This document shows, piece by piece, positions 31,674 through 54,095 of a DNA stretch of 64,000 nucleotides. Origin of the DNA: Cellulomonas sp. Y8 (lineage in GTDB: Bacteria > Actinomycetota > Actinomycetes > Actinomycetales > Cellulomonadaceae). A model generated the notes under the pieces. It was not told the DNA's origin and searched no databases. It was given only the letters and a program-made list of their open reading frames with translations. The stretch is from contig NZ_CP041203.1 in NCBI RefSeq assembly GCF_008033115.1, positions 4,278,001 through 4,342,000 of the forward strand, in the 5' to 3' direction. Position 1 is the first letter of the stretch; every line of letters begins with the position of its first letter. A program made the position numbers and the translations under genes.

Positions 31674-32030
31674 ATGGCGAGCGGAAGTGCGATCCGGGGG
31701 TCCCGCGTCGGCGCGGGCCCCATGGGCGAGGCCGAGCGCGGCGACGCCGCGCCCCGCGTGTGGATCTCCTACTGGTGCGCGAACGGCCACGAGACCCGGC
31801 CGTCGTTCGCCGAGGAGGCCGCCGCCGAGGCGCCCGAGACCTGGGACTGCCCGCGCTGCGGCTTCCCGGCGGGCCAGGACGAGGCGAACCCGCCGTCGCC
31901 GGTGCGCAACGAGCCGTACAAGACCCACCTGGCCTACGTGAAGGAGCGCCGGTCCGCCGAGGACGGCGAGGCGATCCTGGACGAGGCCCTGGCCGCGCTC
32001 CGCGCCCGCCGTCGCGGCGGGGTGCGCTGA
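31674..32030 (+). CDS. rbpA: RNA polymerase-binding protein RbpA
   Basis: Actinobacterial transcription factor that binds the housekeeping sigma factor and RNA polymerase, stabilises the open complex and affects rifampicin response. 118 residues: start [24 protein letters not shown], core domain with metal-type [13 protein letters not shown] and [13 protein letters not shown], then the basic linker and sigma-interaction domain ([30 protein letters not shown]). It is followed by a strong terminator. Confidence 0.96.
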
Positions 32031-50358: not shown

Positions 50359-50432
<74 letters not shown>

Positions 50433-50436
50433 CGTG

Positions 50437-51031: not shown

Positions 51032-53206
51032 TCACGTCCCGGTCAGCACCACCAGCCGCTGCGTGGCCCTCGTCATGGCGACGTACCGGTCGACCGCCCC
51101 GGTGACGCCGCCTCCCCAGCGCTCCGGGTCGACCAGTACGACGAGGTCGAACTCCAGCCCCTTCGCGCCCGCGGGCGACAGCGACCGGACCCGGGGCGCC
51201 CCGGCGACCTCCCGGTCGGCGCCGATCACGCACGCGACGCCCTCCGGGTGCTCGTCGAGCCACGTCCCGAGGAGCTCGTCCAGCTCGCCGACGGTCCCGT
51301 GCGCCACGGGCACCCCGGTGCTGCGGACCGAGGTCGGCACGTTCGCGTCGGGGAGCGCGGCCCGGATCACCGGCTCGGCCGCCGCCATCACCTCGGCCGG
51401 CGTGCGGTAGTTGATCGACAGCGACGCCACCACCGGGTCGCCCAGCCCGACGCGGCGCAGCCGCTCCGCCCAGGGCTCCGTGAACCCGTGCCGGGCCTGA
51501 GCCCGGTCGCCGACGACGGTCAGGCTCCGCGACGGCGACCGGCGCAGGAGCATCTGCCACTCCGCGTCGGACAGCTCCTGGGCCTCGTCGACGACCACGT
51601 GCGCGAACGGGCCGGCCAGCCGGTCGGTGTCGGTGCGGGCGTCCTCGGGGTCGCCGAGCAGCGCGTGCTCGAGGTCCGCGCCGCGGAGCATGTCGAGCAT
51701 GCCCTCCTGCTCGCCGTCGCGGTCGGCGGCGATCAGGTCGTCGGCGACGCGCGCCCGGTACTCGCGCTCGGCCGCCGCCTCGGCCTGCCGGCGGTTCCGG
51801 CGCCGGGACGCCCCGGGGTCCCCGAGCCGGTGCCGGGCGGCGTCGAGCAGCGGCAGGTCGGCGTCGGTCCACGCCCGCGGGTCGCGGCGCTGCAGCAGGT
51901 CGACCTGCTCGGGTGCCAGTCCCGGCGCGCACAGCCGGAGGTACGCGGGGACGGACCAGAGGTCGGCCACCAGGTCCGCCGCGTCCAGGAGCGGCCACGC
52001 GCGGTTCAGCGCGGCGACCAGGTCCGCGTGCCGGCGCAGGGCGCGGCGGAGCAGGTCGTCGGGGATCTCGTCGTCCTGCTCGCGGGCCTGCTCCGCGAGC
52101 AGGTCCACCAGGGCCTCCTCGATCACGTCGCGGGCCTCGTTGTGCGGGGTGCCCGGGTCGGGCGCGCCGAACGCCTCGGCCCAGTCCTCGGGGCCGAGCC
52201 ACAGGTCGGCCCACGGCGTCTCGACCAGCAGGCCGTCGGCGGGGGGCCGCTCGGAGAACCGCACGGCGGGCTCGATCGCGCGGACCAGGTCGAGGGTGCC
52301 CTTGAGGCGCGCGACCTCGGGGTCGGGCTCGGGCACCGCGGTGGCGCCCTCTGCCACGAGGTCGCGCAGCACGCAGGTCCGCGCGCCGTCCTCGCCGAGA
52401 TTCGGCAGCACGTCGGCGACGTAGTCCAGGTAGGGCCGGCTCGGGCCGACGACCAGGACCCCGCCGCGGCGGTGGTCGACCAGCGGGTCGGCGTAGAGCA
52501 GGTACGCGGCGCGGTGCAGGGCGACGACGGTCTTGCCGGTGCCGGGTCCGCCGTCGACGACGAGGGTCCCGCGCGAGCCCGCCCGCACGATCGCGTCCTG
52601 GTCCGCCTGGATGGTCCCGAGCACGTCGCGCATCCGGGCGGTGCGGCTGGCGCCCAGGCCGGCGATGAAGGCGGACTCGTCGTCGAGCGCGGCGCCGGCG
52701 GCGTGCCTTGCGGCGCCGTACCCGGCGAGCACCTCGTCCCAGTAGTCGGTGACCCGGCCGCCGGTCCACCGGTACCGGCGCCGCGCCGCAACGCCCATCG
52801 GCCGGGCCCGGGTCGCGGCGAAGTACGGCTCGGCGGCGGGGGACCGCCAGTCGACGAGCAGCCGGCGCCCGTCGGCGTCGGTGAGCCCGAGGCGGCCGAC
52901 GTACACGGGCTCGCCGCCGTCGTGCGGGGTGAGGCGGCCCAGGCACAGGTCCAGCCCGAACCGCCGCAGCGCGCGCAGGCGGCGCGTGAGCCGACGGACC
53001 TCGGCGTCGCGGTCGAGGGTCTGCTGGCCCCGGCCCGCGGGCTGCCGGCGCACGGCGTCGAGCCGTTGCGCGAGATCGGCTGTCGTCGCGTCGAGGGCGG
53101 CGGCGATCTCGGCGAACTGGCGCTCGTCGTCCGCGATCAGGGCGGGGTCGGCCTTGACGGCGAGGCGGTCGGGCAGGTGGAAGGCGGGGGTCGCGGTGGC
53201 GGTCAC
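51032..53206 (-). CDS. HelD/HelR-like RNA polymerase-associated helicase
   Basis: 724-residue superfamily 1 helicase-like ATPase of the HelD type, whose members remove stalled RNA polymerase; HelR of Streptomyces and Mycobacterium abscessus displaces rifamycins. GTG 53206 follows GGAGGAG by four bases. The N-terminal ~85 residues form the charged helical arm (ALDATTADLAQRLDAVRRQ...DRDAEVRRLTRRLRALRRFG). Walker A GGPGTGKT is at 219-226, Walker B VVVDEAQELSDAEWQ, SLSINYRTPAEVM and C-terminal RYVAMTRATQRLVVLTGT complete the ATPase. A 19-bp RAE-like palindrome lies upstream, favouring HelR over generic HelD or UvrD. The specific drug function is inference. Confidence 0.85.
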   Translation of the reverse strand: MTATATPAFHLPDRLAVKADPALIADDERQFAEIAAALDATTADLAQRLDAVRRQPAGRGQQTLDRDAEVRRLTRRLRALRRFGLDLCLGRLTPHDGGEPVYVGRLGLTDADGRRLLVDWRSPAAEPYFAATRARPMGVAARRRYRWTGGRVTDYWDEVLAGYGAARHAAGAALDDESAFIAGLGASRTARMRDVLGTIQADQDAIVRAGSRGTLVVDGGPGTGKTVVALHRAAYLLYADPLVDHRRGGVLVVGPSRPYLDYVADVLPNLGEDGARTCVLRDLVAEGATAVPEPDPEVARLKGTLDLVRAIEPAVRFSERPPADGLLVETPWADLWLGPEDWAEAFGAPDPGTPHNEARDVIEEALVDLLAEQAREQDDEIPDDLLRRALRRHADLVAALNRAWPLLDAADLVADLWSVPAYLRLCAPGLAPEQVDLLQRRDPRAWTDADLPLLDAARHRLGDPGASRRRNRRQAEAAAEREYRARVADDLIAADRDGEQEGMLDMLRGADLEHALLGDPEDARTDTDRLAGPFAHVVVDEAQELSDAEWQMLLRRSPSRSLTVVGDRAQARHGFTEPWAERLRRVGLGDPVVASLSINYRTPAEVMAAAEPVIRAALPDANVPTSVRSTGVPVAHGTVGELDELLGTWLDEHPEGVACVIGADREVAGAPRVRSLSPAGAKGLEFDLVVLVDPERWGGGVTGAVDRYVAMTRATQRLVVLTGT

Positions 53207-53262
53207 GGGGCTCCTCCGGGGCGCGCTGGGGGCGGTGCGCCGAGGATTCTGGGCCCGGGAGG

Positions 53263-53281
53263 GGGCCTTGCGGCAAGACCC
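53263..53281 (-). promoter_or_regulatory. Rifamycin-associated element (RAE)-like palindrome upstream of helR
   Basis: Plus-strand GGGCCTTGCGGCAAGACCC agrees at 17 of 19 positions with the RAE consensus as I remember it (GGGGCTTGCGGCAAGGCCC), keeping the full core CTTGCGGCAAG. Its edge is 57 bases from the helicase start. A minus-strand TATAGC -10 box at 53289-53294 lies directly upstream, so the element would sit at or just after the transcription start. RAEs mark rifamycin-inducible resistance genes in actinobacteria. Confidence 0.75.
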
Positions 53282-53288
53282 CTGCCGC

Positions 53289-53294
53289 GCTATA
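53289..53294 (-). promoter_or_regulatory. -10 box of the helR promoter
   Basis: TATAGC on the minus strand (part of GTATAG), placing the start of transcription near 53281, at the edge of the RAE-like element. Confidence 0.4.
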
Positions 53295-53393
53295 CGTTGA
53301 GAGTGGCGGAGGCGGCTCCCGCGACCATGGCTTAAGGTTCCCTGGGTCTCGCCTGTGTATGCACCAGGCACCTCGCCCCCGGAAGGTCTCCCC

Positions 53394-54095
53394 GTGCGCT
53401 TGCCGTCCCTCGCCGTGCCCGCTGCCGCCCTCGTCCTCGCGCTCGGCCTCGCCGGCTGCTCCGCGGACCAGCCGAAGGAGAAGGACCGCGAGCCCGCCGC
53501 CGGCGCCTCGGCCGCCGCGAGGGAGGCCGAGATGGGACCGCTCGAGGTCGACTACGAGGTCGAGGCGGTCGACTTCGGCGCCGCCGGTGCCGTCACCGCA
53601 CCGGGCACGGCGTTCGCCCTCGGCCAGCCGGCGTGGCTGAACCAGACCGAGACCTACGGCGAGGACGAGGTCAGCGGCGGGGTCGGCGTGGCCGTGCTGC
53701 AGGTCAGCGAGCTCGACGCCGCGCTGTTCGACCAGTTCAGCAACGCCGAGGAGTTCGAGGGGTACACCCCGTACGCCGTGATCACGCAGCACCAGTGGCT
53801 GTACGACACCCCGGAGGGCTACGACCCCGCGACGGTCGACCTGTTCCCGCTCGACGCGACCGGCGCCGACACCGAGTACCTCACCAGCGGGTTCTCGCTG
53901 AACTCGCCCGGCGACTCGTGCGGCCTGCTGCTCCCGGAGTACGACGAGGAGAACCGCGTCCTGGTGTCGTGCTTCGTCGCGCTGGCCAAGGACGGCGCCG
54001 TCGTCACCTCGGCCGAGTACAACGGCGAGTCGTACCAGTCGTTCATCGCGTCGTCGGACAACCCGTACTTCCCGTCGCCCGTCACCTGGAAGTGA
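53394..54095 (+). CDS. Secreted lipoprotein of unknown function
   Basis: 233 residues from GTG 53394 behind GGAAGG. Signal with lipobox GLAGC (Cys at about 22), a charged Lys/Glu linker, then one extracellular domain containing GTAFALGQPAWLNQTETYGEDEVSGGVGVAVLQV (a DUF4352-like beta start) and later single Cys in DSCGLLLPEYD and LVSCFVALAK that may pair. Divergent from helR with a shared ~190-base promoter region; any link to it is not evident. Confidence 0.8.
   Translation: MRLPSLAVPAAALVLALGLAGCSADQPKEKDREPAAGASAAAREAEMGPLEVDYEVEAVDFGAAGAVTAPGTAFALGQPAWLNQTETYGEDEVSGGVGVAVLQVSELDAALFDQFSNAEEFEGYTPYAVITQHQWLYDTPEGYDPATVDLFPLDATGADTEYLTSGFSLNSPGDSCGLLLPEYDEENRVLVSCFVALAKDGAVVTSAEYNGESYQSFIASSDNPYFPSPVTWK

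What the first reader, a model, noticed from the sequence alone, without database searches (positions are those of the whole stretch)
51032..53281. HelR-like helicase behind a rifamycin-associated element
Seen: a HelD-type helicase with complete Walker motifs, and a 19-bp near-palindrome GGGCCTTGCGGCAAGACCC ending 57 bp before its start, with TATAGC just upstream. Known: RAEs precede rifamycin resistance genes in actinobacteria, and RAE-linked HelR proteins in Streptomyces and M. abscessus pull rifamycin off RNA polymerase. Inference: this organism carries an inducible RNA-polymerase protection gene. The window also encodes RbpA, another protein affecting rifampicin response. The consensus is from memory (17 of 19 matches).
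Basis: partly seen in the sequence, partly recalled or inferred. Interest (0 to 1): 0.85.

Follow-up and report, generated by a model that had tools for sequence, protein, structure and literature searches.

The report
HelR gene with two-way rifamycin promoter

Summary
Window 51032-53206 (minus strand, 724 aa, GTG start) encodes HelR: NCBIfam NF041254 1169 bits against a cut-off of 750, inside the HelR clade. The 19-bp element at 53263-53281 is a rifamycin-associated element (RAE): the genome's only site with fewer than 3 mismatches, and the same element precedes 106 of 111 HelR loci examined. The gene is a new member of a known kind.

Following the RAE over 120 dissimilar loci in front of helR, rox-, rph-, rgt-like and arr genes gave more: a mirror-symmetric frame. 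The core TTGCSGCAA supplies overlapping -35 hexamers for two divergent promoters, each with a 19-bp spacer: sense -10 nAnnnT (118 of 120), never starting with T (0 of 116); antisense -10 TAnnnT (115 of 120). The predicted antisense RNA starts at a covarying hairpin, followed by a U-tract in 21 of 116 loci against 10 of 1160 shuffles. This parallels the antisense promoter of Bacillus helD. How rifamycin tips the balance, and whether a protein binds the conserved GGG/CCC flanks, is open. There are no transcript data.

The parts
51032..53206 (-). helR coding sequence, 724 aa, GTG start
   Evidence: translation; NF041254 1169.2 bits, cut-off 750; HelR clade
53263..53281 (.). rifamycin-associated element (RAE), 19-bp near-palindrome
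   Evidence: only site in the genome with <3 mismatches; same element upstream of 106 of 111 HelR loci
53271..53276 (-). -35 hexamer TTGCCG of the sense promoter (P2), inside the RAE
   Evidence: coordinates; TTG in 99-100% of 120 loci (these loci were chosen by RAE match); published that the RAE overlaps the P2 -35 in M. smegmatis (review)
53246..53251 (-). -10 hexamer CAGAAT of the sense promoter, spacer 19
   Evidence: nAnnnT at spacer 19 in 118 of 120 loci
53268..53273 (+). -35 hexamer TTGCGG of the predicted antisense promoter (P-anti), overlapping the sense -35
   Evidence: mirror geometry
53293..53298 (+). -10 hexamer TACGTT of the predicted antisense promoter, spacer 19
   Evidence: TAnnnT at spacer 19 in 115 of 120 loci, in at most 2% of 116 loci at any other spacer from 12 to 29
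53305..53305 (+). predicted antisense transcription start (G)
   Evidence: standard -10 to +1 spacing; purine here in 116 of 120 loci; inference
53306..53322 (+). weak bulged hairpin at the start of the predicted antisense RNA, without a U-tract in this genome
   Evidence: fold; strong hairpin in 53 of 116 loci elsewhere
53239..53239 (-). predicted sense (P2) transcription start region, about 33 nt of leader before the start codon
   Evidence: inference from -10 spacing
53211..53217 (-). Shine-Dalgarno-like GGAGGAG
   Evidence: sequence

Best explanation
The gene is helR: an ATPase that binds RNA polymerase, clears stalled complexes and displaces rifamycin (shown for relatives in print, inferred here). 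Its switch, the RAE, is most likely part of two divergent sigma-A-type promoters that share overlapping -35 hexamers, namely the palindrome core TTGCSGCAA: a weak sense promoter (CAGAAT, never T at its first base) and a stronger-looking antisense promoter (TACGTT) whose RNA would be a dead end that in many loci runs at once into a hairpin. The geometry is shown by comparison. That both promoters fire, that the antisense promoter normally wins because only one polymerase can hold the shared -35, and that rifamycin tips the balance to the sense side is inferred. The closest precedent is the antisense promoter that restrains Bacillus helD until rifampicin arrives.
For: HelR identity. RAE tied to HelR: 106 of 111 HelR loci; of the 30 loci of the HelD search 5 of 9 above the HelD cut-off and 0 of 21 below it. 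Mirror geometry: antisense TAnnnT in 96% of 116 loci at spacer 19 and at most 2% at other spacers. For the 89 helR/helD loci oriented by the gene alone, 86 antisense and 88 sense. First base of the -10: antisense T 97%, sense T 0% and C 84%. A search by geometry alone with the flanks left free finds sites in 132 of 296 genomes; the reversed control matches once in the rows listed. Of 30 loci taken 28 could be read (one is this window), and all 28 precede helR or rox-, rgt- or rph-like genes. Hairpin arms covary: mean run 5.11 against 3.93 +/- 0.10 permuted. Hairpin plus U-tract in 21 of 116 against 10 of 1160 shuffles and 0 of 116 after the sense promoter. Not the neighbour's promoter: kept in 63 of 66 loci whose upstream neighbour runs the same way. 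Bacillus helD: antisense promoter with a 19-bp spacer and a ~90-nt terminated antisense RNA (PMC12802891 section 45).
Against: No transcript data exist here. The RAE flanks GGG and CCC stay conserved even when a search leaves them free (27 and 25 of 28); a -35 does not need them, so another function, such as a bound protein, is likely. The promoters diverge and overlap, unlike the convergent Bacillus pair, where shortening the distance until polymerases exclude each other abolished induction (section 48), so the Bacillus logic cannot simply be copied. The same columns also give a sense hexamer CAnnnT just upstream of the RAE (nAnnnT in 97% at -17), and looser nAnnnT matches occur at antisense spacer 25 (41%) and sense spacer 22 (21%). 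The wobble-pair test of which strand the hairpin serves was inconclusive: G.T 22 against A.C 15 in 54 loci. Strong hairpins without a U-tract are also found after the sense promoter (23 of 116 against 13% in the shuffles of the antisense side). The window's own copy has only a weak hairpin and no U-tract. A sense start upstream of the RAE is reported for M. smegmatis, though no enrichment of such promoters was seen in 116 loci. Orientation of the non-helR loci was chosen partly with the hexamers themselves, and the core's own conservation is partly due to choosing loci by RAE match.
Confidence: 0.6

Rival explanations
1. The RAE is an operator: an unknown rifamycin-responsive transcription factor binds the 19-bp palindrome as a dimer and turns on the sense promoter; the antisense promoter is incidental or secondary. 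This is the default in the papers read here.
For: Dyad with GGG/CCC flanks conserved beyond -35 needs. The review and the 2026 paper both suggest a possible unknown factor. Deleting the upstream RAE half abolished induction (Hurst-Hess et al. 2022 as reported in the review).
Against: It does not predict an antisense TAnnnT at exactly 19 bp in 115 of 120 loci, nor a covarying hairpin with an antisense U-tract. Sites stand in front of different genes in 46 of 115 genera, so any factor must be very widely conserved; linkage to a regulator was not tested. The deletion also removes the sense -35, as the review itself notes.
Confidence: 0.3
2. The conserved box upstream of the RAE is a sense promoter (TATAGC or CAACGT as -10), so the RAE lies at the start of its transcript and acts as an RNA hairpin or initially transcribed sequence.
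For: TATAGC lies 7 bp from the RAE in most loci; a sense nAnnnT (CAACGT) at -17 is present in 97% of 116 loci. The review gives a sense P1 upstream of the RAE in M. smegmatis.
Against: TATAGC lacks the T at position 6. The sense CAnnnT reading does not explain the 97% T at the first antisense base or the G at the antisense +1, and neither sense reading has a conserved -35. Sense-type promoters are not enriched upstream (0.22 against 0.26 shuffled at score 6 or more). RAE positions 4 and 16 are often unpaired (G-G or G-A), so an RNA stem is not kept.
Confidence: 0.1
3. The antisense promoter simply serves the divergently transcribed upstream neighbour.
For: In the window the upstream lipoprotein-like gene (53394-54095, plus strand) is divergent, and it is also antisense in L038-L040.
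Against: The antisense -10 is kept in 63 of 66 loci whose neighbour runs the same way as the resistance gene; in L041 the lipoprotein was not found but the box is unchanged.
Confidence: 0.05

Closest known systems
HelR of Streptomyces venezuelae and Mycobacterium abscessus (class II HelD, rifamycin target protection)
   Same: NF041254 match far above cut-off, M. smegmatis class II HelD as best structural match, RAE upstream.
   Different: No experimental data for this organism; the primary papers were not held and are known here only through reviews.
Rifamycin-associated element, RAE (Spanogiannopoulos et al. 2014, cited in the review)
   Same: 19-bp palindrome upstream of rifamycin resistance genes.
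   Different: Here placed inside a larger frame: two divergent -10 elements at equal distance and, in many loci, an antisense hairpin.
Bacillus subtilis helD/pps dual-promoter alarm (PMC12802891)
   Same: Antisense promoter with a 19-bp spacer, short antisense RNA ended by a terminator, antisense promoter dominant, helD under control.
   Different: In Bacillus the promoters are convergent, 39 bp apart; in the RAE frame they are divergent and share the -35 region. The Bacillus paper treats the RAE as a separate, unexplained case.

Membership tests
HelR (NCBIfam NF041254) | Profile score above the curated cut-off | tested here: met
   1169.2 bits against 750
HelR (NCBIfam NF041254) | Groups with RAE-linked HelR and apart from HelD paralogues | tested here: met
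   70-protein FastTree: HelR side of 39 rows (36 with RAE) at support 100; the own paralogue lies in a 22-row group without RAE. 70 of the 142 proteins at hand were used; the tool warns of long branches
HelR (NCBIfam NF041254) | Intact SF1 motor (Walker A and B) and the DWR motif of HelD proteins | tested here: met
   GGPGTGKT 219-226 and D540 invariant, E541 nearly so, D119-W120-R121 invariant; DWR as family motif from PMC8655204 passages
HelR (NCBIfam NF041254) | Primary-channel loop of class II HelD | tested here: inconclusive
   The region between motor halves (residues about 425-535) is present and alignable with class II relatives, but the model is under pLDDT 50 at 498-527, and the loop's exact limits were not checked against a structure
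HelR (NCBIfam NF041254) | Confers rifamycin protection and displaces the drug | not testable with these tools
   needs biochemistry
RAE | 19-bp palindrome matching the consensus, with nothing comparable elsewhere in the genome | tested here: met
RAE | Lies upstream of a rifamycin resistance gene | tested here: met
   here helR; in 32 of 32 other strict sites of the phylum sample helR, arr, or rox-, rph- or rgt-like genes
RAE | Needed for rifamycin induction | not testable with these tools
   published for M. abscessus as reported in the review
Bacillus-type dual-promoter alarm | Antisense promoter plus sense promoter upstream of the gene | tested here: met
   sequence level only:
Bacillus-type dual-promoter alarm | Convergent orientation without steric overlap | tested here: not met
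   divergent, shared -35; so not filed as a member
Bacillus-type dual-promoter alarm | Antisense RNA terminated shortly after its start | tested here: inconclusive
   strong hairpin in 53 of 116 loci, hairpin plus U-tract in 21 of 116; weak and without U-tract in the window

The most novel reading that the evidence does not exclude
The RAE is not primarily an operator but a polymerase-autonomous rifamycin sensor: two divergent promoters compete for the polymerase through one shared palindromic -35, the strong antisense one makes only a terminated RNA of about 26-30 nt, and rifamycin releases the weak sense one. Actinobacteria and Bacillus would then have arrived separately at antisense-promoter alarms for the same drug.
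Probability: 0.35. Interest if true: 0.85.

Novelty: new variant of a known kind. Interest (0 to 1): 0.6.

Why it matters
The helR gene itself adds one more species to a known resistance type. The wider point is the switch: RAEs stand in front of five kinds of rifamycin resistance gene across actinobacteria, and two papers read here in part say that the mechanism and any regulator are unknown (PMC10719064; PMC12802891). A specific antisense promoter at a fixed place turns that open question into one 5'-end map and one reporter mutant.

Tried and rejected
Searches used a reference one base out of frame and returned nothing; repeated correctly. In one search loci from the genome search on the minus strand had not been turned round, so 17 HelR loci wrongly seemed to lack an RAE; corrected (the logo used only the 88 rows that already showed an RAE). 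The first neighbour-orientation caller (69 same, 42 divergent, 5 none) misread L038 and was replaced, which called the known downstream gene correctly in 114 of 117. RAE as an RNA stem: rejected because positions 4 and 16 often do not pair. TATAGC or CAACGT as a sense -10: lowered, see rivals. A sense promoter further upstream: not enriched. Wobble test of hairpin strand: inconclusive. L249 and L252 of the geometry search were not placed by my script, so 28 of 30 were counted; the rox call for L265 rests on 74 aligned residues.

Paper searches for an earlier report of an antisense or divergent promoter at the RAE. For most hits only the listing was seen. Passages were seen of PMC10719064 (also section 9), PMC12802891 (also abstract, sections 37, 45, 48, 49), PMC8655204, PMC11464796, PMC7283461, PMC10194278 and PMC13099321. 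None of what I saw described it, but Spanogiannopoulos 2014, Hurst-Hess 2022 and Surette 2022 are not held, so it may already be in print.

Full report
What is there. The open frame on the minus strand gives a 724-aa protein from a GTG at 53206. It matches NCBIfam NF041254 (RNA polymerase recycling motor ATPase HelR) with 1169.2 bits, cut-off 750, far ahead of the second HelR model (432.5), mycobacterial HelD (398), Bacillus HelD (81.5) and UvrD/PcrA (under 25). The nearest solved chain by sequence is M. smegmatis HelD (351.5 bits). A predicted model from 27 sequences (mean pLDDT 73.8; under 50 mainly at 82-189 and 498-527) is closest to M. smegmatis HelD bound to RNA polymerase (8qn8, E 2.1e-46, 36% identity, TM about 0.6) and then B. 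subtilis HelD; UvrD comes later. In a 70-protein tree (of 142 proteins at hand; FastTree, with long-branch warnings) it sits in the HelR clade next to Cellulomonas hominis (88% identity), while the genome's second HelD gene at G000:C1:398518-400692 sits in a group without RAEs; the best RAE match upstream of that gene has 6 mismatches. The window lies in a single-contig genome of 4,475,991 bases; the nearest named relatives suggest Cellulomonas.

The element. The 19-mer at 53263-53281 is the only site in the genome with fewer than 3 mismatches to the consensus; 7 further sites have exactly 3, and the reversed pattern has 22 at up to 3. In 396 genomes drawn from the phylum the strict consensus occurs in 24, with no control match in the rows listed. 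The 37 rows are 33 distinct sites; the 32 besides this window precede rox-like (11), helR (10), rph-like (5), arr (4) or rgt-like (2) genes. These names rest on BLAST to five representatives, and NCBIfam supports the four new ones unequally: arr passes its cut-off (263.9 against 250); the rox representative matches rifampin monooxygenase at 470 bits, below that cut-off of 800, its best match being a subfamily without a functional name (NF005303); rgt reaches 495 against 800; rph reaches 729 against 999 with only half of the protein on the locus. Within the family, HelR above cut-off and the strict RAE go together: 52 both, 11 HelR only, 10 RAE only, 77 neither of 150. Ten of the 11 HelR-only genomes have an RAE with 1-2 mismatches outside the variable positions when looked at; G040 was not looked at. 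The 10 RAE-only genomes carry an rgt-, rox- or rph-like gene or a shortened or contig-cut helR next to it.

HelR and RAE belong together. The 111 HelR loci are this window, 30 loci above the NF041254 cut-off and 80 found by tblastn, 61-88% identical in the best segment (the profile was not run on these 80). 106 of the 111 have an RAE (3 or fewer mismatches outside the variable positions) within 500 bp. The five misses are L045, L063, L064, L087 and L113; L063 and L064 have only 284 and 52 bases upstream. Of 30 loci from the mycobacterial HelD search, 5 of the 9 above cut-off and 0 of the 21 below have one. This agrees with the published clustering of RAEs in HelR branches (PMC8655204, passages).

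A frame around the RAE. An ungapped alignment on the RAE shows that conservation does not stop at 19 bp. Measured from the palindrome centre, both sides carry a -10-like hexamer at the same distance, 21-26 bp: C-A-g-A-a-T on the sense side and, read on the antisense strand, T-A-c-g-T-T on the other. With TTGC(C/G)G in the palindrome as -35, both spacers are 19. In 116 loci made less redundant (under 72% identity) antisense TAnnnT is at spacer 19 in 96% and in at most 2% at any other spacer from 12 to 29; sense nAnnnT is at 19 in 98%. Looser matches exist: antisense nAnnnT at spacer 25 in 41%, sense nAnnnT at spacer 22 in 21%, and a sense nAnnnT just upstream of the RAE (-17) in 97%, which shares its columns with the antisense hexamer. 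In the final set of 120 the counts are 115 and 118; for the 89 helR/helD loci oriented by the gene alone, 86 and 88. Other loci were oriented partly by these hexamers, two being flipped. The two promoters are unequal: the antisense -10 begins with T in 97%, the sense -10 with T in none and C in 84%. The predicted antisense +1 is a purine in 116 of 120. In mycobacterial arr loci and in Microbacterium-type loci the box differs but remains TAnnnT.

A blind check. A pattern holding only the geometry (antisense TA and T, core TTGCSGCAA, sense A and T), with the flanks free, matches in 132 of 296 genomes and 46 of 115 genera of the class; the reversed control matches once in the rows listed, the list of places was capped, and the own genome has one site, this one. 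Of 30 loci taken, 28 were read (one being this window): helR 20, rox-like 4, rgt-like 2, rph-like 2. The GGG and CCC flanks, though not asked for, are present in 27 and 25 of 28. So the flanks have a role that -35 hexamers do not explain.

The antisense RNA. Just beyond the predicted antisense start lies an inverted repeat whose sequence varies between loci while its arms stay complementary: mean best run 5.11 against 3.93 +/- 0.10 in 300 permutations of arms among loci. Strong hairpins occur in 53 of 116 loci against 148 of 1160 shuffles; with at least 4 T in the next 8 bases on the antisense strand in 21 of 116 against 10 of 1160. In the mirror position after the sense promoter 23 of 116 have a strong hairpin and none has the T-tract; on the sense side of the antisense hairpins 1 of 53 has one. 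The commonest hairpin start is the predicted +1 itself (21 of 61). This looks like a promoter with its terminator directly attached, in a part of the loci. The window's own copy has only a weak, bulged hairpin and no U-tract, so for this genome that part is not met. A test by wobble pairs could not tell the strand (22 G.T against 15 A.C in 54 loci).

Is it the neighbour's promoter? Unlikely: with a caller that got the known downstream gene right in 114 of 117 loci, the upstream neighbour runs the same way in 66, diverges in 47 and was not found in 7; the antisense -10 is there in 63, 45 and 7.

How it may work. Published: rifampicin stops RNA polymerase after 2-3 nt and class II HelD displaces it (PMC11464796, passages). 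The RAE overlaps the -35 of the more downstream sense promoter in M. smegmatis, a sense P1 start lies about 20 bp upstream of the RAE, and the regulator is unknown (PMC10719064 section 9; PMC12802891, passages). In B. subtilis helD a dominant antisense promoter with a 19-bp spacer and a terminated RNA of about 90 nt holds the sense promoter down until rifampicin comes (sections 45 and 48). I infer that the RAE is an actinobacterial counterpart in which the two promoters stand back to back on one palindrome. The missing step is how the drug frees the sense promoter: an arrested polymerase on the antisense promoter would still cover the shared -35, and in Bacillus a version too short for both polymerases was not inducible. 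Either arrested polymerases leave quickly, perhaps helped by basal HelR, or a protein on the conserved flanks takes part. I put about 0.6 on the two-promoter frame being the working switch and about 0.35 on it sensing the drug without a dedicated regulator.

Context in this genome. RpoB has the usual rifampicin-pocket sequence [31 protein letters not shown] (read by eye from the DNA; comparison with E. coli from recall). An Arr enzyme (NF033144 148.7 bits, cut-off 130) lies at G000:C1:4404040-4404336; the genome scan shows no RAE there at up to 3 mismatches. Two RbpA genes are present, one in the window.

Noticed in passing
L204:1414-1824 (G000:C1:4404040-4404336): Same genome encodes an Arr rifampin ADP-ribosyltransferase above its NCBIfam cut-off, without an RAE; a TACCCT close before its GTG suggests a leaderless transcript (inference).
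   Followed up: partly
L233 (G000:C1:397700-400900): Second, RAE-less class II HelD paralogue on a long branch of the tree.
   Followed up: partly
window 31689-32003 and G000:C1:74748-75056: Two RbpA genes in one genome.
   Followed up: no
window 50359-50433: tRNA-Pro (GGG) gene beyond the 3' end of helR.
   Followed up: no
L215 (G145), and G013:C2:3091447-3093628: HelR copies behind an RAE that look broken (a shortened 329-aa frame; a profile match split into two pieces).
   Followed up: no
L051, L057 and other Streptomyces/Nocardia/Planotetraspora-type loci, about 30-50 bp after the RAE: A recurring CCTGCGG(AAA) in the leader is complementary to the CCGCAG that contains the sense -10; it is not present in the window's leader.
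   Followed up: no
loci L122, L124, L125, L127: RAE copies upstream of arr carry a different antisense -10 (TACAGT, TATAGT, TATGGT, TAAAGT) but the same spacing.
   Followed up: partly
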